NCBI GenBank assembly: GCA_015488325.1
Contig: WFOA01000099.1
Span: forward strand, 1-32,096
Length of the DNA stretch: 32,096 nucleotides
From: Acidimicrobiia bacterium
Lineage (GTDB): Bacteria > Actinomycetota > Acidimicrobiia > Spongiisociales > ZC4RG35
Reading direction: 5' to 3'
Below the pieces are notes generated by a model. That model searched no databases. It was given only the letters and a program-made list of their open reading frames with translations, and was not told the origin of the DNA. Positions 1,944 to 17,121 of this stretch are shown piece by piece (the first letter of the stretch is position 1; every line of letters starts with the position of its first letter). Position numbers and translations under genes: made by a program.

Positions 1944-3818
1944 TCAGTCCTCCGACGCCAGCCACGGCCCTCGACCGAGGACACCGAACGCCCGACGTCC
2001 GTCGACGAGGGAGACCCACCCCGCGTCGGCCTCCACCCGCTGGGCAGTCCCCACCAGCGCCACCCGACACCCCCCACCTTCGAACGTCCGCACCCCGTCG
2101 GCGACCTCGACGAGCCGCCACGTTCCCGAAGCACACGACGCCATCGCCGCCAGGGCTCGGAGACCGGCCCGTGGATCACCCCGTCGGTCCACGAGGCCGA
2201 GACGGGGGAAGTAGCCGCGGTCGTGGTCGACGAAGCCGTCGAGGAAGACGGCGACACCCGGATTCGCCCGGGCGACGATCTCGGCCTCCACCACCCGGTT
2301 CGCCAGCTCTGCCTCGTCGTCGAACATGGATCCTTCGCCCCGACGGGGCAACTCGACGCAGACAACGGCCGCCAGCCCGCAACCGGCGGCCACGTCGACG
2401 GCCGCGGCGACCGACTCCCAGATCGGGTCGGGCGGACGGACCCGGAACACCGCCTCGTCGGCGAAGCCTGCCGACGCGGCGACGGTCTCGACGGAGTCGA
2501 CGACGGAGAAGCCGGAGGAGACGAAATGCGCCCCCCGGAACGAGGGTCCTTCCACCGGGACGAGGGGAGCCACCGCCAACGTCCCCGACGGCGGTCGTGG
2601 CGTCCGACCGTCCCACACCGCACCCGGGGGGAGGACCACCTCCCACCGGGCGACGGCTCCCGAACCGGGAACCCCCTTCAGCCGTTCGACGCCGGGGACG
2701 ACCACCGTGAACTCGGTGCCGCGACCTGCCAGTTCGAACACCCGCTCCCGGGTGTCGGCCCGTTCCAGGTCGTCGACGGGGATCCGAACCCGACGGATCC
2801 GCGCCTCCCACAGGGCGAAGACGGAGGCGTCGTCGCGGGCCCGTTTCCGACCGAACTCGTCGAGCCCGCCCATCACGAGGTCCCGGGGGAAGGCCCATCC
2901 GTGGCGGAGCGTGACGCCGATCCGGGTCTCACACCCCGAGGGGGCTGGCACGACGACCGGGCCGCCAACGTCGGTCCCGGCACGGCCCCAGGTCCGGACG
3001 GGATGGACGATGTGCCCGTCGGCTCCCACCTCGACGACGAACAGGCCGAGCTTTCCGCGATCGTCGCGGCCGAACTGGTCGACGGGGGCGACGGCGTCGA
3101 ACTCGGCGTAGCCGGGGCGTACGAACCCGACGGCCGGCACCACGTACAGGTCCGTCCCCCCGTGACGCCGATGGAAGAAGCGGTGCACGTGGCCGGAGAA
3201 GACCGCTTCGACGTCGTACCGCTCCACCAGGTCGAGCAGGCGCCGCCGCACCGGCGGGGCCAGGTTGTCGTAGTGCTCCGCCTCGGTCGGGTCCCACAGG
3301 TAGGGCGGATAGTGCCCGAACAGGAAGATGCGTTCGCCTGCCTCGGCGGCGTCGGCCAACGTCGCCTCCAGCCAACGCCACTGGTCGGCTTCGGCCGGGG
3401 TGCCCGTACCGAGAACCGGGGTGTCGACGAGGACGAACCGACAGCCTTCCGCCCGAAACGACCGGTGTCGAGGACCCCAGCGGGCCTCGAAGCGGACGTA
3501 GTGCTCTTCGGACGCCGTCGGTGCGTCCACCCACGGGAAGGGTTTGTCGCCGACGTCGTGGTTGCCGGGCACGACGTAGAGGGGAGCGTCGAGGCGGGCG
3601 TAGGCGACGGACGCCAGTTCGTTCGCCCGGTGATGGTGCACATCCCCCGGGACCGGATGGACGACGTCGCCGAGGTGGATCACGAACGCCGGGGCCAGCC
3701 GGTTGAGGACGTCGACCATGTGCCGGTTCCGGGCCTCGAGGAGGGCGTTGGCGGGGAAGTCACCCGGCGGCAGGTCGTCGGGTCGCACGTGGGTGTCGGC
3801 GACGACGGCGAACCTCAT
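1944..3818 (-). CDS. Calcineurin-like metallophosphoesterase with a long uncharacterised C-terminal domain
   Basis: The N-terminal ~280 of 624 residues are a calcineurin-type phosphoesterase. The di-metal motifs are complete and in order: D-x-H at Asp8/His10, GD at Asp51, GNHD with Asn87/His88, GHYPP with His169, and GHVH with His210/His212. Such enzymes hydrolyse phosphomono- or phosphodiesters. Residues ~285-624 are not part of the usual domain. They contain alternating hydrophobic strand and helix segments, and a stretch AVFLDGFVDHDRGYFPRLG that looks barrel-like, but I do not recognise the family. The start is ATG 3818, whose ATGA overlaps the stop of the alpha/beta hydrolase. The open frame continues upstream to 4232, but that part is the antisense-frame shadow of the hydrolase gene. 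It is the last gene of the minus-strand run. Confidence 0.85.
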   Translation of the reverse strand: MRFAVVADTHVRPDDLPPGDFPANALLEARNRHMVDVLNRLAPAFVIHLGDVVHPVPGDVHHHRANELASVAYARLDAPLYVVPGNHDVGDKPFPWVDAPTASEEHYVRFEARWGPRHRSFRAEGCRFVLVDTPVLGTGTPAEADQWRWLEATLADAAEAGERIFLFGHYPPYLWDPTEAEHYDNLAPPVRRRLLDLVERYDVEAVFSGHVHRFFHRRHGGTDLYVVPAVGFVRPGYAEFDAVAPVDQFGRDDRGKLGLFVVEVGADGHIVHPVRTWGRAGTDVGGPVVVPAPSGCETRIGVTLRHGWAFPRDLVMGGLDEFGRKRARDDASVFALWEARIRRVRIPVDDLERADTRERVFELAGRGTEFTVVVPGVERLKGVPGSGAVARWEVVLPPGAVWDGRTPRPPSGTLAVAPLVPVEGPSFRGAHFVSSGFSVVDSVETVAASAGFADEAVFRVRPPDPIWESVAAAVDVAAGCGLAAVVCVELPRRGEGSMFDDEAELANRVVEAEIVARANPGVAVFLDGFVDHDRGYFPRLGLVDRRGDPRAGLRALAAMASCASGTWRLVEVADGVRTFEGGGCRVALVGTAQRVEADAGWVSLVDGRRAFGVLGRGPWLASED

Positions 3819-5182: not shown

Positions 5183-6331
5183 TCACCCCCAGTAGGTTCG
5201 GTGGGCCGAAAAGGCGGTGAGGAACCGGTCGAGATCGGTGTCGTCGTTGTAGAGGTGAAGAGAGACCCGCAGGTTCCCGTCCCTCGCCGACGTCACGATT
5301 CCCTCGCCCCGAAGGGCGGTGACGAGACCTTCGGCGTCGCCGCATCGGACCGCCACGAGGGGCCCCACCTGCGGGGACTTCGGGGTGGCGACCGTCGCCC
5401 CGAGCTCCTCGAGCTCCTCGACGAGCCTCCGGGCCAGCTCCTCTACGTGCGTCTCGATCGCCCGGGTCCCGACCTCGTTGACGATCCCGAGCCCGGCCAC
5501 CGCCGCGTAGATCGACGGGATGGGCGGAGTGCCGGCTTGGAACCGCCGCGCATCCGGGGCGGGGCTGTAGTCGTGGACGTCCATGGCGAAGATGTCCTCG
5601 TCGGCGAACCAGCCCGTCTGGGTCGGGACGAGCCGGCCGACGAGCTCCGACCGGCACCACAGGAACGCCACACCGGCCGAAGCGAGCAGGTACTTGAGGG
5701 CGCCGCCGGTGAGGAGGTCTGCGCCCAGGTCCCCCACGTCCACGTCGATCGCCCCCAGACCCTGGTAGCCGTCGACCAGGCTGAGGGCCCCCCGCTCCCG
5801 GGCCAGCCCCACCAGTTCGGCGGCGGGCAGCCGGGCGCCGTTGCGGTAACTGACGAGGGAGAAGGAGACGAGGGCGGTCCGCTCGTCGACGAGGCGGTCC
5901 GCCGCCGCCAGGTCGACTCCCCCGTCGGGACCCTCGGGGATCTCCACGATCCGCAGTCCTCGCCGCTCCTGGGCCCAGAAGATCTGGCCGACGGTGGGAA
6001 AGTCGAGGGCCGTGTACACCAACGTGTCCCGGCTCTCTTCGATCGGCAACGCGCTGACGACGGTGCTGACGGCGTGTGAAACCGAGCCGGTGACCGCCAC
6101 CTCGTCGGGCCGCGCCCCGACGAGCCGGGCGAAGGCCTCGCGCGCCTCGACCTCTTTCCCCACCCACAGGTCCCAGGGTGAGCCGAGCTCGTCCCAGTCC
6201 TCGAGGTAGCGGGCGTAGGCGGCCCGAACCCGATCCGAGAGCGCCCCCTGCGAGCACGAGTTCAGGTAGGTGGTGTGCTCCAGGATGGGGAACCGGCGAC
6301 GCCAGCGGCGAGGCAGATCGGCCATCGTCAT
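5183..6331 (-). CDS. Class V aminotransferase-fold PLP enzyme (kynureninase/cysteine desulfurase-like)
   Basis: The 382-residue protein has the class V aminotransferase fold. It shows an N-terminal TYLNSCSQGALS substrate-binding stretch, Asp187 in SLVDGYQ (pyridine-nitrogen partner), a DLGADLLTGG strand and the probable Schiff-base Lys213 in GGALKYLLAS. The DGYQ-x-x-G-x-x-x-x-D-V arrangement is closest to kynureninase and isopenicillin-N-epimerase-like relatives. Members cleave C-S or C-C bonds, epimerise or transaminate, so the reaction is open. The start is ATG 6331, whose ATGA overlaps the livF stop; a second ATG two codons later is possible. Being coupled to an amino-acid-type importer suggests it acts on the imported compound or an early derivative. 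That link is an inference from position. Confidence 0.88.
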   Translation of the reverse strand: MTMADLPRRWRRRFPILEHTTYLNSCSQGALSDRVRAAYARYLEDWDELGSPWDLWVGKEVEAREAFARLVGARPDEVAVTGSVSHAVSTVVSALPIEESRDTLVYTALDFPTVGQIFWAQERRGLRIVEIPEGPDGGVDLAAADRLVDERTALVSFSLVSYRNGARLPAAELVGLARERGALSLVDGYQGLGAIDVDVGDLGADLLTGGALKYLLASAGVAFLWCRSELVGRLVPTQTGWFADEDIFAMDVHDYSPAPDARRFQAGTPPIPSIYAAVAGLGIVNEVGTRAIETHVEELARRLVEELEELGATVATPKSPQVGPLVAVRCGDAEGLVTALRGEGIVTSARDGNLRVSLHLYNDDTDLDRFLTAFSAHRTYWG

Positions 6332-7035
6332 CTCCCCAGGTAGGCCCGTTTGAGATCTTCGTCCTCCGCCAGCTCCGACGCCGGGCCCGACAGGACGATC
6401 CTGCCGGTCTGGAGGACGTAACCGCGGTCGGCGATCTGCAGCGCCATGTTGGCGTTCTGCTCCACCACCAGGATCCCCACACCTTGGGCGTGGACGTCGG
6501 AGATGATCTGGAAGGACTGTTCGACCAGCACCGGGGCCAGACCCATGGACGGCTCGTCCATCAGCAACATGCGGGGCCGTGACATGAGGGCCCGCCCCAT
6601 CGCCAGCATCTGCTGTTCACCGCCCGAGAGGGTACCGGCGAGCTGGTCTCGACGTTCGTAGAGGCGCGGGAAGAGGTCGAAGACCCGCTCGAAGTCTTCG
6701 GTGAGGTCCCCGTCTCGAAGGTAGGCTCCGAGCTCGAGGTTCTCCAACACCGTCATCGGGGCGAAGACCCGTCGGTTCTCGGGCACGATCGCCATGCCCC
6801 GGGCGATCCGATGACTCGTCGGGGCGTGGGTCACGTCCTCGCCGTCGAACACGACCCTCCCCTCCGCCGGACGTACGATCCCGAGACAGGTCTTCAGGGT
6901 GGTGCTCTTCCCGGAGGCGTTGCCTCCGAGGAGACAGACCAGCTCGCCGGGGCCCACTTCGAGCGACACCTTCTGGAGGATGTGGATCTCCCCGTAGAAG
7001 GTGTCGACGTCGACGAGCTCCAACAACGCGCTCAC
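6328..7035 (-). CDS. livF: Branched-chain amino acid-type ABC transporter ATP-binding protein LivF
   Basis: This is a 235-residue cytoplasmic ATPase of the HAAT (branched-chain amino acid) importer class. It shows Walker A GGNASGKST (37-45), the signature LSGGEQ (136-141), Walker B MLLMDEP (156-162) followed by SMGLAPVL, and the switch histidine region replaced by VVEQNAN, as is normal in LivF. The first Walker A residues are GGNASGKS rather than GxNGAGKT, a common LivF variant. The start is GTG 7035; its GTGA overlaps the livG stop, and its own stop overlaps the next gene. It pairs with LivG on the LivH/LivM channel. Substrate is not defined by the ATPase; the family also imports amides, urea and aromatic acids. 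Confidence 0.94.
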   Translation of the reverse strand: MSALLELVDVDTFYGEIHILQKVSLEVGPGELVCLLGGNASGKSTTLKTCLGIVRPAEGRVVFDGEDVTHAPTSHRIARGMAIVPENRRVFAPMTVLENLELGAYLRDGDLTEDFERVFDLFPRLYERRDQLAGTLSGGEQQMLAMGRALMSRPRMLLMDEPSMGLAPVLVEQSFQIISDVHAQGVGILVVEQNANMALQIADRGYVLQTGRIVLSGPASELAEDEDLKRAYLGR

Positions 7036-7817
7036 TTGGTGGCCGCCCCTCCCGTGCCCAGGTAGGCCTCGATCACGGCCGGGTCGGCCGCCACGTCCTC
7101 GAAGCTGCCCTCGGCGATCTTGACTCCGTGGTCGAGGGCGACCACCCGATCCGAGATGCCCTCCACCACGTGCATGTCGTGCTCGATGACGAGGATGGTG
7201 TACCCGGCGTCGTCCCGGAGCTCGCCGATGAGCCGGGTGATCTCCTGGGTCTCCGCCGGGTTCATCCCCGCCGCCGGTTCGTCGAGGAGCAACAGCCCGG
7301 CCCCGGTCGCCATCGCCCGGGCGATCTCCAGGCGACGCCGGTTGGCGTACGACAGGCTGTAGGCGGGCTGGTCCAGGCGATAGCCGATGAGGCGTTCGCC
7401 GAAGAAGCGGAGACGCTCTTCGGCGACGGCGCGCATCCGGGCGGCTTCGGCCCGGGCGGCGGGTGTCCCGAAGAAGCTCCGCACCGCCCCCACCTTGCCC
7501 GACGCGTACTCGGCGGCGATCACGTTCTCCGCCACCGTCATGTTGAGGAACACCCGGAGGGTCTGGAAGGTCCGGGCGACGCCCCGTCGGGCGATCTCGT
7601 GGCGGGGGAGGCCGACGATGCTCGACCCGTCGAGGAGGATGTCGCCCTCGTCGGGTGCGAACACGCCCGAGATGAGGTTGAAGACCGTCGTCTTCCCCGC
7701 ACCGTTGGGACCGATGAGCGAGACGATCTCGCCTTCGGCGACGGTCAGGTCGAGGGAGTCGACGACCAGCAGCCCGCCGAAACGCTTGGTGAGGCCTGAC
7801 AGCTCCAGGGTCGCCAT
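7032..7817 (-). CDS. livG: Branched-chain amino acid-type ABC transporter ATP-binding protein LivG
   Basis: This is the second ATPase of the importer, 261 residues. It has Walker A GPNGAGKTT (36-44), the FQTLRVFLNMTVAENV stretch typical of LivG, a signature-region variant LSYANRRRLEIARA (from 155) where LSGGQ is usual, Walker B LLLLDEP (175-181) followed by AAGMNP, and the switch His in IEHDMHVV. The LSYANRR form is seen in other LivG proteins and is not a defect. ATG 7817 was chosen because a GAGGTG ribosome site lies about 8 nt upstream. An in-frame GTG two codons earlier (7823) would give the same 4-nt stop/start overlap with livM that its neighbours show. It forms a heterodimer with LivF. 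Confidence 0.94.
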   Translation of the reverse strand: MATLELSGLTKRFGGLLVVDSLDLTVAEGEIVSLIGPNGAGKTTVFNLISGVFAPDEGDILLDGSSIVGLPRHEIARRGVARTFQTLRVFLNMTVAENVIAAEYASGKVGAVRSFFGTPAARAEAARMRAVAEERLRFFGERLIGYRLDQPAYSLSYANRRRLEIARAMATGAGLLLLDEPAAGMNPAETQEITRLIGELRDDAGYTILVIEHDMHVVEGISDRVVALDHGVKIAEGSFEDVAADPAVIEAYLGTGGAATK

Positions 7818-7819
7818 CT

Positions 7820-9229
7820 TCACACCACCTCGACGCGAGGACGACCCAGCAGCCCGTGGGGACGAGCGACCATGAGCACCACCAACAACGCCCCGAAGAG
7901 CAGTTGACGGGTGATGCTCGGCTCCTCCACGAGTCGGTTCTCCCAGACGAGGACGAGCAGGTAGACACCGACGACAACCAGCGCGTCCTTGGCCCCGCGG
8001 CGTCGGACCGCCACGATGCCCAGCACCACGGCGATGGTGACGATGAACAGCACGCTCACCACCACGTCGGCGGACGGCACGAAACGCACCACCCACCGGT
8101 CCACCATGCCGGCGGCTTCGACGTCGACGAGGTCCGGCCAGAGCGCGGTCACCAGGCTCCGCACCGCCAGTCCCGTGGCGACGATCCCGGGGACGACGAC
8201 GAGCAGCCTCCGGCGCGGTTTGACGAGGGTGAGGGCGGCGACGGCGAGACCTCCGTAGAAGAGGAGACGTGCCCCGGCCGGGGTGCGGAGGAGCTCGGGC
8301 ACCATGGCGATGATGAGGGCGCCGACCAGCGCACCGGGCACCGATCCCTCCCCGCCCAGCACCAGGGCGGCATACACGACGATGAGGAGGGCGACGGTGA
8401 AGTTCTGAGGAAAGACCCCGAGCTGCACCGCGGCGAACACCGTGCCCGAGACGGCGGCGACGGCGGCGCCGAACGCGTAGGCGAGGACCTTGAGCCGTCC
8501 ACTCGGGATCGTCATGTGTTCGGCGGCGAGGGTGTCCTCTCGAATGGCCCGCCACCCGATCCCGGTGCGGCTACGGGCCAGGTTGGTGACCCCGACGATG
8601 AGGAAGACCACGAGAACGAGCAGGAGGAAGTAGTAGTCGCGTACCTGGCCGAAGCGGAACCCGAAGATCTCCATCGGGTCGACCCCGGCGATCCCGTTGG
8701 GACCGCCGGTGATGCTCACCGGGCCGTCGACGAAGGGCAGGTCCAGGCGGTCGAGGTTGAGGGCGAGCTCCACGAACACTTGGAGGAAGAAGAGGGTGAG
8801 GATGGCCAGGTAGTCGCCGACGAGCCGGCGGGCAGGCTGGCCGAGAACCAGCCCGATACCGAACACGGCGAGGGCGACCACGCCGACCACCAGGAGGGTG
8901 GGGAGATGGATGCCGAACTGTTCGGACGCCAAGAATGCGTATCCGTAGGCCCCGAGCCCGTAGTAGGCCACATAGCCGAGGTCGAGCAACCCGGTGTAGC
9001 CGACGACGACGTTCAGCCCGATGGCCAACATGGCGAGGAGGAGGGCGTTCACTCCCACCCGGATGCCGAAATCTCCGCCGATCACGAAGGGGTAGACCAC
9101 CGCCGCCACCACGAACAGCCCCAGCCAGTGACGGGAGGTCCAGTCGACGAGCCGACCCCACGGGCCCTCGCGGCGTACCCGACGGGACTCGAACTCTGCG
9201 ACCCAGCGATCGGTGCCGATCTCGGGCAT
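7820..9229 (-). CDS. livM: Branched-chain amino acid-type ABC transporter permease LivM, C-terminally extended
   Basis: This 469-residue polytopic inner-membrane protein has the LivM core: NVVVGYTGLLDLGYVAYYG (transmembrane entry), the DYLAILTL segment, an ITGGPNGI loop, and the EAA-like cytoplasmic coupling region RTGIGWRAIREDTLAAEHM. Usual LivM proteins have about 300-360 residues. After the last core segment (PGALVGALIIAMVPELLRTP) about 170 more residues follow, with several further hydrophobic segments and the family-typical end RPHGLLGRPRVEVV. These segments therefore look inserted before the true C-terminus and may be extra membrane helices. The start is ATG 9229, 3 nt after the livH stop. 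It forms the channel with LivH. Confidence 0.92.
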   Translation of the reverse strand: MPEIGTDRWVAEFESRRVRREGPWGRLVDWTSRHWLGLFVVAAVVYPFVIGGDFGIRVGVNALLLAMLAIGLNVVVGYTGLLDLGYVAYYGLGAYGYAFLASEQFGIHLPTLLVVGVVALAVFGIGLVLGQPARRLVGDYLAILTLFFLQVFVELALNLDRLDLPFVDGPVSITGGPNGIAGVDPMEIFGFRFGQVRDYYFLLLVLVVFLIVGVTNLARSRTGIGWRAIREDTLAAEHMTIPSGRLKVLAYAFGAAVAAVSGTVFAAVQLGVFPQNFTVALLIVVYAALVLGGEGSVPGALVGALIIAMVPELLRTPAGARLLFYGGLAVAALTLVKPRRRLLVVVPGIVATGLAVRSLVTALWPDLVDVEAAGMVDRWVVRFVPSADVVVSVLFIVTIAVVLGIVAVRRRGAKDALVVVGVYLLVLVWENRLVEEPSITRQLLFGALLVVLMVARPHGLLGRPRVEVV

Positions 9230-9232
9230 CGC

Positions 9233-10150
9233 TCAGACCTTCACCGGTTCGGGGACCCCGAAGATCCCCCGGGGCCGGATCAGCAGGAACGCGATGAGCA
9301 GGCCGAACACGATGAGATTCTGGAACGTCGACGAGATGTAGCCGGCGGAGAAGGCTTCGGCCAGGCCGATGAGCAGCCCTCCCATCATCGCTCCGGGGAT
9401 GCTGCCGATTCCTCCGATGACGGCGGCGGTGAACCCTTTGAGTCCGGCGATGAAGCCCATGAAGTGGAACACCCGGCTGAACACGAGGCCGACCATCACC
9501 CCGGCGGCCCCGGCGAGCACCGACCCAATGAGGAAGGTAGCGACGATGACCCGGTCGACGTCGATGCCCATCATCGCCGCCGCTTCCCGGTCGTAGGCCG
9601 TCGCCCGCATCGCCTTGCCCAGCTTGGTTCGTTTGACGAGCAGGTGGAGCACCACCATGAGCGCCACCGCGGAGAGGATCACGACGATCCGGATGATCGA
9701 GATCCGGAGCGGACCCCACTGCAGCCCGGTGGACGGGTCCACCATCTTGGCGGTCCCGTAGGAACGGAACCGGGCACCTGCCACCAGCAGCGCCGCGTTC
9801 TGGAGGAAGAAGGAGACTCCGACGGCGCTGATCAACGGTGCGATGCGGGGGGCGTTGCGCAGCGGCCGGTAGGCGAAACGTTCGATGACGACCCCGAGGA
9901 TCCCCGACGCCGCCATCCCGGCCAGGAACATGGCGAAGATGAGGACGACGACGGGGATCCTCGGGTCGGTCGGACCGCCGAAGGCGACGAGGACGGCGTA
10001 CCCGGCGAAAGCGCCGACCATGTAGACGTCGCCGTGGGCGAAGTTCAACAGCTTCAAAATGCCGTAGACCATGGAGTATCCGAGGGCGATGAGGGCGTAG
10101 ACGCCACCCAGCGTGAGCCCGTTCACCAGCTGTTGGAGGAAGAACTCCAT
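9233..10150 (-). CDS. livH: Branched-chain amino acid-type ABC transporter permease LivH
   Basis: The 305-residue membrane permease opens with MEFFLQQLVNGLTLGGVYAL and continues with the LivH-typical GYSMVYGILKLLNFAHGDVY. It also has the coupling-helix region LGKAMRATAYDREAAAMMGIDV, IGGIGSIPGAMMGGLLIG and the terminal LLIRPRGIFG. Its length and about eight hydrophobic segments fit the family. The start is ATG 10150, and the gene follows the substrate-binding lipoprotein by 22 nt with only a weak ribosome site. It forms the translocation channel with LivM; the substrate class (hydrophobic or small amino-acid-like compounds) follows from the family, not from residues seen here. Confidence 0.94.
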   Translation of the reverse strand: MEFFLQQLVNGLTLGGVYALIALGYSMVYGILKLLNFAHGDVYMVGAFAGYAVLVAFGGPTDPRIPVVVLIFAMFLAGMAASGILGVVIERFAYRPLRNAPRIAPLISAVGVSFFLQNAALLVAGARFRSYGTAKMVDPSTGLQWGPLRISIIRIVVILSAVALMVVLHLLVKRTKLGKAMRATAYDREAAAMMGIDVDRVIVATFLIGSVLAGAAGVMVGLVFSRVFHFMGFIAGLKGFTAAVIGGIGSIPGAMMGGLLIGLAEAFSAGYISSTFQNLIVFGLLIAFLLIRPRGIFGVPEPVKV

Positions 10151-10592
10151 GGTCTACGGCTTCGGGACGTTCCTACTTCACCAGCTCGTAGTTGCCTCCC
10201 TTGATCTGGAAGATGAAGAACCGCCCGCCGTCCACGTCGCCGTTCTCGGTGAACCGGATCGGCTGCCCGAGGATCGACGTCGGCTGGTCGACGGCCCTCA
10301 CCGCCTCCACCACGGCGTCGCGGGTGAGCTCGGTACCGGCGTCGCAGAGCGACTTGATGGCGTCCAACAGCACCACCGTCGCCGCGTAGGTCGGCGGGCC
10401 GAAGGTCCCGAACTCGCCGTACTGGGCTTCGTAGGCGGCCACCAGCTCGGCGTCTTCGGGGATGCCGCGAATGTCCGGCGCGAAGGACGACACGTAGGCC
10501 CCTTCGATCGTGAAGTCGCTCGGCGAGAACAACCCGTCGGAGCCGAAGATGACGGCGTCCTTGCCCTGCTCCGCCATCTGCTCGCCGAAGAG

Positions 10593-10595
10593 CTA
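10593..10595 (-). other. Premature in-frame amber codon in the substrate-binding protein
   Basis: Plus-strand CTA reads TAG on the coding strand. Frame upstream and downstream of it is the same, and the protein sequence reads through smoothly as QIAANA-stop-LFGEQ, so no indel is needed. TAG also serves as the natural terminator of this same gene (10173-10175) and of the PYROXD2-like gene at 23074, so general reassignment of TAG is unlikely. Confidence 0.9.
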
Positions 10596-11210
10596 GGCGT
10601 TGGCGGCGATCTGCCAGGGCAGGAACACCACGTCGGTGGCGTCGTCGATCTTCGCCACGAGGGCGGAGAAGTCGGTCACGTCCTGGCTCACCGATTCCCG
10701 GACCACCTCCACGCCGGCGTCGGCGAGGGTGGCGGCGGTGGTGTCCGCCAGCCCGGTCGAATAGGAGGTCTGGTCGTCGATGATCATCACCTTCGACGCC
10801 GCCAGCTCCTCGACCATGAACCGGGCGTCGGTGGGCCCTTGCTGTCCGTCGTGGGGGACGACTCGGAAGAACGTCGGCAGGGACCCGTCGGTGAGGGACT
10901 CACGGGTGGCCGACATCGACACGAACGCCATGGTGGCGTCGCTGAAGATCGGTCCCACCGCCTCTACCTCCTGGCTGCCGGCAGGACCGACGACCCCGAG
11001 GATCGCGTCGTCGGCGGCGAACTGCTGGGCGACGGTGCTGGCCTGGGCGGGGTCGAGAGCGGTGTCGCCTTCGACCAGCTCGAAGTTGGTGCCGTTTTCG
11101 TCGTTGTACCGATCGACGGCGAACACGGCCCAGTTCCGCTGCTCCTCACCGATGGAGGCGGCCGGGCCGGTGATCGGGGCCATCAGCCCGATCTTCGCTT
11201 CACAGACCTG

Positions 11211-11325
11211 TGGGGCGGCGGTGGTCGGGGCGGCCGTGGTCGTCGTCGCCTGCGTCGCCGGTGGCGCCGTCGTCGTCGCCGCCTCCGTCGTGGTGGTGGC
11301 CTCGCCACCGCCACCGCCGCAGGCC
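11211..11325 (-). repeat. Thr/Ala/Pro-rich low-complexity linker coding segment in the lipoprotein
   Basis: Just after the lipid-anchored Cys21 the lipoprotein has a run of about 38 residues made almost only of Thr and Ala with a few Pro, Gln and Glu, encoded by GTC/GGC-rich repeats on the plus strand. Such linkers tether the binding domain to the membrane in actinobacterial binding proteins. The DNA repeat could be prone to slippage, but no frame change is seen here. Confidence 0.75.
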
Positions 11326-11434
11326 GCCACGACCAGGGCGAACACGGCCCACCACGCGAATCGACTCTGCAACCTTCTCATCACGATTACCTCCCTATGC
11401 CCACCGGGTCGGAGTTCCCGACTCGGCTCCGACT

Positions 11435-11443
11435 TGATAAAGT
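11435..11443 (+). promoter_or_regulatory. Candidate extended -10 element TGATAAAGT of the nine-gene operon, inside an imperfect palindrome
   Basis: In this AT-richer patch TGATAAAGT fits the extended -10 form TGnTAnnnT. It would start plus-strand transcription near 11450, about 87 nt before the luciferase-like gene. No convincing -35 is visible. The element is embedded in an imperfect inverted repeat, TTGATA-AAG-TAGCAA (11434-11448), which could be an operator. The same 9-mer recurs at 30571-30579. Purely sequence-based. Confidence 0.4.
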
Positions 11444-11495
11444 AGCAAATCCAAACGCTCGATGTCGACCGGGCATCCGTACGACCCGAGATCGT

Positions 11496-11511
11496 TTGCG
11501 CAAGTATCATA
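11496..11511 (-). promoter_or_regulatory. Candidate -10 box for the importer operon and adjacent TTGCGCAA palindrome
   Basis: TATGAT on the minus strand (11506-11511) is one mismatch from the consensus -10 and would start transcription near 11499, about 118 nt before the lipoprotein start. The adjoining perfect 8-bp palindrome TTGCGCAA (11496-11503) sits over the predicted start site and could bind a repressor. The -35 is weak. Confidence 0.35.
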
Positions 11512-11536
11512 TTTCGCCGAAGGAGGGAGAACCGAG

Positions 11537-12613
11537 GTGCCGCAGCCCTTTCGCGTCGGGGTGATGCAGCTCACGATGGAGCCGCTCGACGAGATCCTGT
11601 CGCACGCCCGCGCCATGGACCGAGCCGGAATCGACACCATCTGGCTCGCCGAGGCGTACCCGTGGTGGCGGAAACATTCGATGGAGGCCCGTTCGACCAC
11701 CGCCCTCTCCCCCCTCATCGCCGCCGAGACCGACCGCCTCGCCATCGGATGGGGCATCATCTCCCCGTACTCGCGCCACCCCGTCCAGATCGCCATGGAG
11801 GCGCGCGTCACCCAAGAGGCGGCAGGCCCCGGCCGGTTCCTCCTCGGCCTCGGCGCCTCCAAGATCCTCATGCGGGAGATCGGTGTCGGTGAACGCACCA
11901 AAGCCCGGCCCCTCGCCGCCATCCGGGAGGCGGCCGAGATCATCCGTCGCACCCTCGGCGGCGAAGGATTCGAACTCGAAGGCCGTGAGTTCACCGCCCG
12001 GGTCCCCTCACTCCCGCCCGACGCCGACGCTCCCCGCTGGGAGGTTCCCGTCTACGTCGCCGCCACCGGCCCGAAGATGCTGGCCCTCGCCGGAGAGATC
12101 GCCGACGGTCTCCTCACCGCCAGCATCACCACCCCCGCCTTCGTCCGATATGCCCGCGAGGTGATGGCCGAAGGGGCGGCACGAGCGGGCCGAGACCCCG
12201 ACCAGATCGACGTCGGCTGCACGATCGTGGCGTCGATCGATCACGACCCGGCGCGGGGCCGGGACGGCGCCCGGGAGATCGCCGGCATGTACCTCGCCAA
12301 CAAGGTGCAGAACATCCGCGGGGCGGCCGACGTGCTCCTCGAGAAGGCCGGGCTCAGCTTCGACGAGATCGCACCGGTGGCCGAGGCGATGGAACGAGGA
12401 GGGAGGCTCGCCGCCAAAGAGGCGGTCACCGACGAGATCCTCGAAAAGGTGAAACCGATCGCGGGGACTCCCGCCGAATGCATCGACCGGATCCGCGAAT
12501 ACCGAGAGGCGGGATGCACCCACATCATGCTGGAGCTGTGGGGTGACGACCGTGAACGCCAGCTCGAGCTGTTCGGGGAAGAGGTGCTCCCCGCCGTGAA
12601 GGGGGACGGGTGA
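11537..12613 (+). CDS. LLM-class (luciferase-like) flavin/F420-dependent oxidoreductase
   Basis: The 358-residue protein has the bacterial-luciferase-like TIM barrel: RVGVMQLTMEPLDEILSHA at the start, TIWLAEAYPWW, a TDRLAIGWGIISPYSRHP strand-loop, GRFLLGLGASK, the conserved VPVYVAATGPKMLALAGEIADGLL block, and a late AGTPAECIDRIREYREAG. It is closest to the methylene-H4MPT-reductase-like/F420 branch rather than to the two-component FMNH2 monooxygenases, but cofactor choice is not certain. GTG 11537 was chosen because AGGAGGG (11521-11527) sits 9 nt upstream. An in-frame ATG at 11462 would add 25 residues that do not look like family sequence. First gene of the plus-strand operon; its stop overlaps the next start (GTGA). 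Confidence 0.88.
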   Translation: MPQPFRVGVMQLTMEPLDEILSHARAMDRAGIDTIWLAEAYPWWRKHSMEARSTTALSPLIAAETDRLAIGWGIISPYSRHPVQIAMEARVTQEAAGPGRFLLGLGASKILMREIGVGERTKARPLAAIREAAEIIRRTLGGEGFELEGREFTARVPSLPPDADAPRWEVPVYVAATGPKMLALAGEIADGLLTASITTPAFVRYAREVMAEGAARAGRDPDQIDVGCTIVASIDHDPARGRDGAREIAGMYLANKVQNIRGAADVLLEKAGLSFDEIAPVAEAMERGGRLAAKEAVTDEILEKVKPIAGTPAECIDRIREYREAGCTHIMLELWGDDRERQLELFGEEVLPAVKGDG

Positions 12614-13860
12614 TCGACCCTGCGCTCGTCTCCGCCGTCGTCGCCGCCGTCGACCGGGAACGGGTCGTGGCGACCGCCGCCGCCCTCGTGGCCGTCCCCT
12701 CCCCCACCGGTGCCGAAGAGGCGGCCGCCGACCTGTTGGCCGACGAGCTGGCCGACGCCGGCTGCGCCGTGACGAAACAGGAGATCGAACCGGGACGCGC
12801 CAACGCCGTAGGACGGGTCCGGGGTGTCGGAGGGGGTCCCACCCTGATGTTCAACGGACACCTCGACACCTCCTATTCGGGAGACGAGCCCTGGCTGACG
12901 GGACCGGGTTTCAAACCCGAACCGGTGATCCGCGACGACGTCGTCCTGGGCCTCGGGATCATGAACATGAAAGGGGCCGTCGCCTGCTACGTCGAGGCGA
13001 TCCGGGCCCTGCGGGACGCCGGGGTGGGACTGGCGGGCGACCTGATCGTCGCCGGCGTCGCCGGGGAGATCGAGAAAGCCGAATGGGGCGACGAATACCG
13101 AGGTGCCACCTACCGGGGGTACGGTGCCGGCACCCGCCACCTCGTGAGCCACGGCGTCGTCGCCGACGCGGCCGTCCTCGGCGAACCGACCGGAGAGCGC
13201 CTCGTCCTCGGCCACTACGGGACCATGTGGGCGAGGATCTCCACCTCCGGACCGTTCTTCCACACCGCCTTCAGCGGCGGTCGCCTCGAAGAGAACTCGC
13301 TGGTGCGGATGCATCGGATCCTCGACGACGTCATCGCCTGGATCGGCCGATGGGAAGACCGGGGCGCCTACCACGACCTTCGCGGCGTGGTCAACCTCGG
13401 CGCCATCCGGGGCGGGTTCCCGTGGCGGGTGAGCCGCACACCCCATCGCACCGACCTGTTCCTCGACATCAGAGTCCCCCCGACGATGGGCTTCGACGAG
13501 GCCGAAGCCGAGCTCCGAGACCTGGTGACCGAGCTCCGGGACCGCCATCCCGACTCCGGCATCGACTGGGAGGTCTACGTGACCGCCGGCGGGGCGGAGA
13601 TCGACGAAGACCATCCCGTGGTCCGCGCCGCCGACGCCGCCCACCGTGCCGTCGCCGGCGAAGCGCCCACCCGGGCCCGCGTGCACTGGGCCTCGGACGC
13701 CTCCACCCTCACCCGGTACGGCATCCCTTCCCTCAACTACGGGCCCATCTCGGGGGCATTGCCGGGTCCGGAAGGCGAGAGCGTCCCCATCGCCTCGCTC
13801 GTCCGAATGTCCGCCTCGTACGCGTTGTTGGCAGCCGAGTTCTGTGGAGTGAAGACATGA
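12610..13860 (+). CDS. M20-family peptidase/deacylase-like protein with altered metal-site residues
   Basis: This 416-residue protein has the ArgE/DapE/M20 layout: the metal-binding FNGHLDT with His84 and Asp86, then the GLGIMNMKG loop, VLGEPTGE with Glu192, a dimerisation-domain insert and a C-terminal SDASTLTRYGIPSLNYGP. M20 enzymes hydrolyse amide bonds of acyl-amino acids or peptides using two zinc ions. Here the bridging Asp of the canonical DMKG is Asn119, the catalytic Glu-Glu pair reads Glu153-Ile154-Glu155 (GEIEK), and the C-terminal His ligand is not found in the expected place (PGPEGE). This may be a distinct subclade with other chemistry. The GTG start at 12610 overlaps the previous stop by 4 nt, and its stop overlaps the next ATG. 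Confidence 0.85.
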   Translation: MIDPALVSAVVAAVDRERVVATAAALVAVPSPTGAEEAAADLLADELADAGCAVTKQEIEPGRANAVGRVRGVGGGPTLMFNGHLDTSYSGDEPWLTGPGFKPEPVIRDDVVLGLGIMNMKGAVACYVEAIRALRDAGVGLAGDLIVAGVAGEIEKAEWGDEYRGATYRGYGAGTRHLVSHGVVADAAVLGEPTGERLVLGHYGTMWARISTSGPFFHTAFSGGRLEENSLVRMHRILDDVIAWIGRWEDRGAYHDLRGVVNLGAIRGGFPWRVSRTPHRTDLFLDIRVPPTMGFDEAEAELRDLVTELRDRHPDSGIDWEVYVTAGGAEIDEDHPVVRAADAAHRAVAGEAPTRARVHWASDASTLTRYGIPSLNYGPISGALPGPEGESVPIASLVRMSASYALLAAEFCGVKT

Positions 13861-14759
13861 AGCTCGTGACGTTCCAAGATCCCGACGGCAACCTCCGTCC
13901 CGGCGTGCACCGGGGCGACCACGTGGTCGCCGTCGACCTGCCCGACATGCGCACCCTGTTCGAGCTGGGAGACGAAGGCCTGGAACGGGCCGCCGCCGCC
14001 ACCGGCCCGAGCTGGGCCGCCGACGACGTCCGGTTGCGGGCCCCCATCGTCCCCAAGAAGTTCTTCCACACCGCCGGGAACTTCCGGGAACACGAAGACG
14101 AGTCGAAACGGGTGGGCTGGTCCCACGAGATCGCCCCGTGGATCGTGTTCTTCCAGAACGTCGACGCCATCATCGGCCCCGACGACCCGGTGATCTACCC
14201 GTCGCATCTCACCAACGAGCTCGACTACGAACTGGAACTCGCCGTCGTCCTCAAACGGTCGGGGAAACATTTCGACGCCGACGAGGCGGAGTCCTACATC
14301 GGCGGGTACGTCATCTTCAACGACGTCACCGCCCGCGACATCCAGCGTGAGGAGATGCGGTCGGGTGTGTTCAGCTTCTGCAAGGGCATCGACACCTTCT
14401 GCCCGGTGGGCCCGTGGATCGTCACCGCCGACGAGATCGAAGACCCCCACGACCTCGAGATGCAGCTCCGGGTGAACGGAGAGATCCGTCAGCGCTCCCA
14501 TTCGTCCCGCATGTGGGTGACGATCCCCCAGATCATCGCCCACTACTCGCCGATGGGATACAGCGCCGGCGACATCGTCTCCACCGGCACCGTCTCGGGA
14601 GTCGCCGCCTTCCAGGAGAACGCCGAAGAGTGGTATCTGCGCCCCGGCGACGTGATGGAGTGCGAGATCGAGAAGATCGGCATCCTGCGGAATCCCGTCG
14701 TCTCCTGGGAGGAGGCCTACGGATCTCCGCCGCCGCCCCGAGGGGAGGGATCGCCATGA
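13857..14759 (+). CDS. Fumarylacetoacetate hydrolase (FAH) family protein
   Basis: This 300-residue cytosolic enzyme has the FAH fold. It shows an N-terminal subdomain, a FFHTAGNFREHEDE block with the conserved His79, the metal ligands Glu125 and Glu127 in ELDYELELAVV, Asp156 in FNDVTARD, the Lys-containing KGIDTFCPVGPWIVT and the late GDIVSTGT. The family hydrolyses or decarboxylates 1,3-diketo or oxo-acid compounds and includes 2-hydroxyhepta-2,4-diene-1,7-dioate isomerases and acylpyruvases, common steps late in aromatic ring breakdown. All ligands look intact. The ATG start (13857) overlaps the M20 stop, and the stop overlaps the M24 start. A Pro-rich tail (GSPPPPRGEGSP) is a likely disordered end that also contains the downstream ribosome site. 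Confidence 0.92.
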   Translation: MKLVTFQDPDGNLRPGVHRGDHVVAVDLPDMRTLFELGDEGLERAAAATGPSWAADDVRLRAPIVPKKFFHTAGNFREHEDESKRVGWSHEIAPWIVFFQNVDAIIGPDDPVIYPSHLTNELDYELELAVVLKRSGKHFDADEAESYIGGYVIFNDVTARDIQREEMRSGVFSFCKGIDTFCPVGPWIVTADEIEDPHDLEMQLRVNGEIRQRSHSSRMWVTIPQIIAHYSPMGYSAGDIVSTGTVSGVAAFQENAEEWYLRPGDVMECEIEKIGILRNPVVSWEEAYGSPPPPRGEGSP

Positions 14760-15928
14760 CCTGGCCGGTCGACACCGAGAAACTCGACCGGGTCCGGGCG
14801 GCGATGGCCGACCAGGACCTCGACGCCCTGGTGGTACGGGCCCCCGATCAGGTGCTGTACCTCACCAACTACTGGTCGATGAAGGGGTATGCGATGGCGG
14901 TGTTCCCCCGGGAGGGGGAGCCGACCTTGGCGGTGCTCGTACCCCAGGTCGAAGACGCCGCCGAGGTGGCCTGGACCACCGACATCCGGCCCTTCGCCGG
15001 CTACCACCCCGACGACCCCCGCCCACCCTCGGCCCGTTCGCTGGAGGTCGCCCTCGACGTGCTGCGAGAGAAAGGACTCACCGGACGGGTCGGGATCGAG
15101 CTCTCCCAGGTGAGTCAAGGGACAGACCGGATGATGGGTGAACCCACCGTGTTCACCATGGACTATTTCCGGGCCTTCGAAGAGGTGGTGGACGAGGTCG
15201 TCGACGCCGTACCGCTGCTCACCCGGGCACGCATGATCAAGACCCCCCAAGAACTCGAACGGATGCGGATCGCCAACGAGCTGGCAGCCCTGGCCCTCGA
15301 AGCCGTCCGCCAAGACATCCGGCCCGGGATGTCCACCGCCGAGGTCGGCGCCCGATGGGAAGGCTACGTCCATCAGATCGGCGTCGGATACGAGGGGCGG
15401 GTCCGGATGGCACGGGGATTCTCCCTCGTCTGGTCCGGCGACGGGATCCGCACCTTCACCCCCACCAAGGGCGAACCGGTCGTGGCGGACGAACCGACGC
15501 TGTTCGAGATCTGGGTGTGCGCCGACGGATACTGGAACGACCTGACGAAGAACATGCTGGCCGCAGGCGAGCTGACCTCCCGATACGACCGGCTCCTCTC
15601 CGACCTCCTCGCCATCTTCGACGAAGCCATCGCCTACGCCCGTCCCGGCGCCGAGATGGCTGGACTCGACCGTCTGATCCGCCGCCGGATCGTCGAAGCC
15701 GGCTACGAAGAGCCGTCCCATCCGGTCTCCCACGGGGTGGGGGCCCGAGCCCACGAGCCTCCCTGGCCCCACCAGGCGGCCGGAGGGACCCTGGAGGCGG
15801 GCATGGTCATCGCCATCGAACCCGGCACCTACTTCCCGGGTGGGGGCGGCCTCCGACTGGAAGACAACTTCTGGATCGGCGACGACGGCGCCGTAAAACT
15901 CTGCCGATACGAGGACGACTTCCGATGA
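14756..15928 (+). CDS. M24-family (Xaa-Pro dipeptidase-like) metallohydrolase, metal site largely intact
   Basis: The 390-residue protein has an N-terminal creatinase/prolidase domain (1-~155) and a pita-bread M24 domain. Candidate metal ligands are Glu251 (in place of the usual first Asp), Asp262 in GYWNDLTKN, His326 in SHGVGARAHEPPW, Glu355 in IAIEPGTY and Glu369 in GLRLEDNF. His333 matches the conserved second His. Four of five canonical ligands are therefore kept. M24 members cleave Xaa-Pro bonds, methionine or creatine; in catabolic operons they often act on small amidic metabolites. ATG 14756 overlaps the FAH stop, with GGGGAGGGA a few bases upstream. A second, more divergent M24 lies at 18997 in the same operon. 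Confidence 0.9.
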   Translation: MTWPVDTEKLDRVRAAMADQDLDALVVRAPDQVLYLTNYWSMKGYAMAVFPREGEPTLAVLVPQVEDAAEVAWTTDIRPFAGYHPDDPRPPSARSLEVALDVLREKGLTGRVGIELSQVSQGTDRMMGEPTVFTMDYFRAFEEVVDEVVDAVPLLTRARMIKTPQELERMRIANELAALALEAVRQDIRPGMSTAEVGARWEGYVHQIGVGYEGRVRMARGFSLVWSGDGIRTFTPTKGEPVVADEPTLFEIWVCADGYWNDLTKNMLAAGELTSRYDRLLSDLLAIFDEAIAYARPGAEMAGLDRLIRRRIVEAGYEEPSHPVSHGVGARAHEPPWPHQAAGGTLEAGMVIAIEPGTYFPGGGGLRLEDNFWIGDDGAVKLCRYEDDFR

Positions 15929-17121
15929 TCGACCGCGACAAGGTCTGGACCGGGCCCCTCAACGACGAAGCCGTCGACCGCACCCCCTTCGCCGGGCGGA
16001 CGATCGGCATCTACGACACCACCCTGCGTGACGGCGAGCAGGCCGTCGGCGTCACCCTCGGACCCGAGCTGAAGCTCGAGATCGCCCGGGCCCTCGACCG
16101 GCTCGGCGTCGACCGCATCGAAGCGGGCTTCCCCCTCGTCTCCGACGACGACGCCCGCGCCTACGAGCTGATCCTCGCCGACGGCCTCGACGCCGAGATC
16201 TGGGGGTTCTCCCGGGCGCTGCCCGGTGACGTCGACCAGCTCCTCCGGCTCGGCGTCGAAGCCGCCGTCATCGAAGCGCCCCTCTCCGACGGCAAGTTGA
16301 CGGCGTACGGCCTGAGCCGGGAGAAGGTCCTCGACCGGATCCGCGCCGCGGTATCCCACGCCGCCGAAGCGGGAATGACCGTCTGTTTCTTCGGGGTGGA
16401 CTCCTCCCGGGCCGATCCGGCGTTCCTGGAGCAGGCCTACACCGAGGCGATCCGGGTCGGCGCGAAGGAGGTGGCGATGGTCGACACCATCGGGGTCGCC
16501 GCTCCCGAAGGCGCCGCCCTGCTGGTGGAACGGTGCCGGTCGTGGGTGGGACCGGACGTCCCCATCCACTGGCACGGCCACGACGACTTCGGGTTGGGCG
16601 TGGCCTGTTCGCTGGCGGCGGTCCGGGCCGGAGCCGACTGGGTGCAGGGAAGCATCAACGGGATGGGTGAGCGGGCCGGGAACGCCGACCTGGGCGAGTT
16701 CGCCGTGGCCCTCGAAGCCCTCTACGGAGGCAACACCCGGCTCCGGCTGGAGGTGCTGACCGAGGTGGCCGAGCTGGTGGCCGACCTCGCCGGGACACCC
16801 CTCGCCCCGTGGAAGCCGATCACCGGCCGCAACACCTTCATCCGAGAGTCCGGGGCGGTGGCCATGCAGTTCCGCGACCCCCCCGCCGTCGAACCCTTCG
16901 CCTCGGAGCTGGTCGGGGCACACCGAGGACTCGTGCTGGGGAAGAAGAGCGGCATCGTCTCGGTGCGCATCAAAGCCGAAGAGTTGGGGATCGATCTCCC
17001 CGCCGAGCTCGAAGCCGACGTGCTCGCCGACGTCAAAGCCCTCGGCATCGCCAAACGTGGTCTCGTCACCGACGCCGAGTTCCGCCAGATCGTCGCCCAC
17101 CGCCAGGAGTCGAAGGGGTGA
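15925..17121 (+). CDS. DRE-TIM metallolyase family protein (LeuA/homocitrate synthase/HMGL-like)
   Basis: The 398-residue protein carries the DRE-TIM barrel signatures: DTTLRDGEQAVG with Asp31, Arg35, Asp36 and Glu38, the metal pair His217/His219 in HWHGHDDFG, and NGMGERAGNADLGE (245-258). A LeuA-like subdomain follows with GRNTFIRESGAV and GKKSG. The family condenses acetyl-CoA with 2-oxo acids (isopropylmalate, homocitrate) or cleaves HMG-CoA-like compounds. In condensing enzymes the subdomain motif is usually a T-H-x-S/A-G-x-H type, with a catalytic His; here residues 306-312 read I-R-E-S-G-A-V, so both His are replaced. Activity may thus differ from isopropylmalate or homocitrate synthesis. 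ATG 15925 overlaps the M24 stop, and its stop overlaps the next gene. Confidence 0.88.
   Translation: MIDRDKVWTGPLNDEAVDRTPFAGRTIGIYDTTLRDGEQAVGVTLGPELKLEIARALDRLGVDRIEAGFPLVSDDDARAYELILADGLDAEIWGFSRALPGDVDQLLRLGVEAAVIEAPLSDGKLTAYGLSREKVLDRIRAAVSHAAEAGMTVCFFGVDSSRADPAFLEQAYTEAIRVGAKEVAMVDTIGVAAPEGAALLVERCRSWVGPDVPIHWHGHDDFGLGVACSLAAVRAGADWVQGSINGMGERAGNADLGEFAVALEALYGGNTRLRLEVLTEVAELVADLAGTPLAPWKPITGRNTFIRESGAVAMQFRDPPAVEPFASELVGAHRGLVLGKKSGIVSVRIKAEELGIDLPAELEADVLADVKALGIAKRGLVTDAEFRQIVAHRQESKG

What the first reader, a model, noticed from the sequence alone, without database searches (positions are those of the whole stretch)
10593..10595. Importer substrate-binding protein broken by a single in-frame TAG
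The frame is identical on both sides and the protein reads smoothly through the stop, so one base (for example CAG to TAG) explains it. All other importer genes are intact, which makes a long-dead gene unlikely. It could be a recent null mutation, a polymorphism or an assembly error, or could reflect suppression. The gene's own terminator is also TAG, arguing against general reassignment.
Basis: seen in the sequence. Interest (0 to 1): 0.65.

Follow-up and report, generated by a model that had tools for sequence, protein, structure and literature searches.

The report
Importer gene with one stray stop
A nutrient-uptake protein gene in an environmental actinobacterial genome is cut by a single stop codon at a spot where most of its relatives carry glutamine; it looks like a very recent or erroneous one-base change, which is ordinary.

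Summary
On the minus strand, the substrate-binding-protein gene (start 11381, end 10173) carries one in-frame TAG at 10593-10595, codon 263 of 402, with no frameshift. The gene heads a complete branched-chain-amino-acid-type ABC importer. The only same-genus relative available is syntenic, 91% identical in protein and has CAG (Gln) there. Six more distant orthologues also have CAG; one has GAA (Glu). Purifying selection looks the same before and after the stop (dN/dS 0.088 and 0.099), and the window's lineage shows no excess of amino-acid changes. The stop is therefore recent, polymorphic or an error; a long-dead gene is rejected. Recoding is not supported: the assembly encodes release factor 1, none of its 46 detected tRNAs has a CUA anticodon, no pyrrolysine ligase passed its cut-off, and 47 of 411 terminated sampled reading frames end in TAG (this one counted). 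In a 671 kb sample this was the only clear conserved gene split this way, apart from a transposase with an in-frame TAA. Best reading: a single C-to-T nonsense change, either a real recent null or strain variant, or a consensus error; reads are needed to separate these. Ordinary.

The parts
10173..11381 (-). Substrate-binding protein gene (Peripla_BP_6, Leu/Ile/Val-binding type) with signal region, interrupted at codon 263
10593..10595 (-). In-frame TAG, codon 263; Gln (CAG) in 7 of 8 orthologues, Glu (GAA) in one
10173..10175 (-). The gene's own terminator, TAG (TAA in the same-genus orthologue)
9233..10150 (-). LivH-type permease (BPD_transp_2), intact
7820..9229 (-). LivM-type permease (BPD_transp_2), intact
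7032..7820 (-). LivG-type ATPase (ABC_tran plus BCA_ABC_TP_C), intact; 5' limit approximate
6328..7035 (-). LivF-type ATPase (ABC_tran), intact; 5' limit approximate

Best explanation
A single-base nonsense substitution (C to T in a Gln codon, CAG to TAG) in the binding-protein gene of a Liv-type ABC importer. Either the sequenced population carries a very recent null or segregating allele, or the consensus base is wrong. If the base is real, translation ends after 262 residues, about 140 residues of the binding domain are lost, and the importer has no dedicated binding protein. The substitution, its position and its recency are shown; loss of function is inferred.
For: The same-genus orthologue (G001:C206 = JALSJV010000206.1) has CAG there, is 91% identical and collinear over 10.7 kb. 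dN/dS is 0.088 before and 0.099 after the stop, within the range of intact neighbours, 0.044-0.118. Polarised amino-acid changes are 7 on the window lineage and 8 on the relative's. A rough binomial bound gives neutral drift for no more than about 10% of the branch. In 671 kb (428 predicted frames) no other clear conserved non-transposon gene is split by a stop in the same frame. No second copy of the gene was found in the assembly.
Against: None direct. The bound on age rests on one outgroup and an assumed equal rate on both branches. Mutation, polymorphism and error are not separated.
Confidence: 0.93

Rival explanations
1. Sub-case of the best explanation: consensus or assembly error, or mixed strains, at one base of a metagenome-assembled genome; the organism's gene is intact.
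For: The genome is fragmented (162 contigs) and looks like a metagenome assembly; the gene shows selection typical of an intact gene on both sides. No other importer gene is damaged.
Against: Mid-contig site, a plain transition with no indel; no reads to judge it by.
Confidence: 0.45
2. Sub-case of the best explanation: a real recent null or segregating nonsense allele in this lineage.
For: C-to-T at CAG is a one-step route to a stop; the genome has six other intact Peripla_BP_6 genes, so loss may be tolerated.
Against: The other binding proteins are only distantly similar, so replacement of this one is unproven. The importer genes show no sign of relaxed selection.
Confidence: 0.48
3. Stop suppression or UAG recoding produces the full protein.
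For: The protein reads smoothly through and remains conserved.
Against: Intact release factor 1; all 46 tRNAs detected have ordinary anticodons, none CUA; no PylS above cut-off; 47 of 411 terminated frames in the sample end in TAG; the TAG is not conserved in the relative.
Confidence: 0.04
4. Old pseudogene.
For: In-frame stop.
Against: Similar dN/dS on both sides, no lineage excess of amino-acid changes, no frameshifts.
Confidence: 0.02

Closest known systems
Leu/Ile/Val-type substrate-binding proteins (LivJ/LivK class, Pfam PF13458 Peripla_BP_6; solved relatives 3ipc, 3ip5, 4n0q, 1usg, 1z15)
   Same: Full binding-protein domain over residues 62-396 when read through, and operon with two permeases and two ATPases
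   Different: An in-frame TAG at codon 263 would cut the domain after residue 262
Nonsense single-nucleotide variants in bacterial and metagenome-assembled genomes
   Same: One C-to-T transition turning a Gln codon into a stop in an otherwise conserved gene
   Different: Nothing tested here distinguishes it

Membership tests
Liv-type (HAAT) substrate-binding protein | Peripla_BP_6 domain over its full length | tested here: met
   PF13458, 141 bits, residues 62-396 of the read-through frame (profile 2-342 of 343)
Liv-type (HAAT) substrate-binding protein | Operon with LivH, LivM, LivG and LivF | tested here: met
   two BPD_transp_2 proteins and two ABC_tran proteins directly downstream
Liv-type (HAAT) substrate-binding protein | Binds branched-chain amino acids | not testable with these tools
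   Ligand not tested
Genome with recoded or suppressed TAG | tRNA with CUA anticodon | tested here: not met
   46 tRNAs, none CUA; genome 98.45% complete
Genome with recoded or suppressed TAG | Many conserved genes with in-frame TAG, few TAG terminators | tested here: not met
   one such gene in 671 kb; 47 of 411 terminated predicted frames end in TAG, this one counted
Old pseudogene | Relaxed selection or accumulated damage | tested here: not met

The most novel reading that the evidence does not exclude
A low level of natural readthrough at this TAG, by near-cognate tRNA-Gln, makes enough full-length binding protein for the importer to work, so that the stop acts as a down-regulator.
Probability: 0.02. 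Interest if true: 0.4.

Novelty: already known. Interest (0 to 1): 0.1.

Why it matters
It matters little beyond annotation: a gene caller will report a truncated binding protein, and the importer should not be scored as lacking one without checking the reads. It also serves as a negative test for TAG recoding in this genome.

Tried and rejected
General TAG reassignment (rejected: RF1 present, no CUA tRNA, TAG used as terminator). Pyrrolysine (no PylS above cut-off; the one weak match, 26 bits, is far below 178, and weak matches also occur in most control genomes). Old pseudogene. Second copy of the gene in the assembly (none). Natural end of the protein at this point (homologues run on). Re-initiation at the ATG six codons after the stop was considered; its product would lack the signal region, and no test was possible. 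My first orthologue alignment had L011, L019 and L020 on the wrong strand; L011 was redone, which replaces it. Two paper searches returned nothing.

Full report
Observation. The window is one whole contig (C99) of a 2.89 Mb, 162-contig genome, 98.45% complete. On its minus strand a gene runs from ATG 11379-11381 to TAG 10173-10175 and holds one in-frame TAG at 10593-10595, codon 263. Read through, it gives 402 residues, and Pfam Peripla_BP_6 matches residues 62-396. The truncated 262 residues match only up to 248, profile positions 2-189 of 343. Solved relatives include Leu/Ile/Val-binding proteins.

Setting. Directly downstream lie two BPD_transp_2 permeases and two ABC ATPases, the usual Liv-type set, with no internal stop. 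The neighbour on the other strand is a luciferase-like monooxygenase followed by an M20 peptidase.

Relatives. Among 99 related genomes, the one same-genus genome carries the closest orthologue, 91% identical with no stop. It is JALSJV010000206.1, from an Acidimicrobiia metagenome-assembled genome, collinear with window 5651-16379 at 85% DNA identity. Codon 263 is CAG there and in six further orthologues of about 50-56% identity, and GAA in one of about 70%. The window's gene is the only one with a stop.

Age. dN/dS against the same-genus orthologue is 0.088 before and 0.099 after the stop. Over the whole gene it is 0.095, against 0.044-0.118 for six neighbouring genes. Of the amino-acid differences that the outgroup resolves, 7 fall on the window's lineage and 8 on the relative's. 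With a neutral rate taken from dS, more than about 10% of the branch without selection is unlikely (P about 0.05). This is a rough bound with one outgroup and an assumed equal rate. The gene is not long dead.

Recoding. The genome has an intact release factor 1 above the curated cut-off. All 46 tRNAs found with the Rfam model have an ordinary anticodon by ARAGORN, none CUA. No pyrrolysine ligase reached its cut-off. In 671 kb sampled, 47 of 411 terminated predicted frames end in TAG, 350 in TGA and 14 in TAA; the TAG count includes this interrupted frame. I read by eye the junctions of the other same-frame neighbours: they look like ordinary gene boundaries with a new start or antisense shadow frames, but I did not confirm each by homology. 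The one other clear interruption is a transposase with TAA. Suppression is therefore unsupported, though a tRNA in the missing 1.5% of the genome cannot be excluded.

Function. If the base is real, the importer loses its own binding protein (inference). Six other Peripla_BP_6 genes in the genome are intact, but their full-length matches to this protein are below 30% identity, so whether any could replace it is unknown.

Verdict. A single nonsense substitution, recent, polymorphic or erroneous. It is an ordinary event and scores low.

Noticed in passing
L090 (G000:C83:20000-39999), about 15592-16101 +: A transposase fragment with an rve-type integrase core has an in-frame TAA (LLEA*VLVADW) and reads on in the same frame to the end of its domain.
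   Followed up: partly
L089 (G000:C25:40000-57371), 3488-3578 +: ARAGORN calls a tRNA of unknown type with a four-base anticodon (ccca); the Rfam tRNA model does not report it, so it is probably a false call.
   Followed up: partly
window 5183-6331 -: A class-V aminotransferase, with a weak kynureninase C-terminal match below its cut-off, lies just downstream of the importer operon and may hint at the substrate.
   Followed up: no
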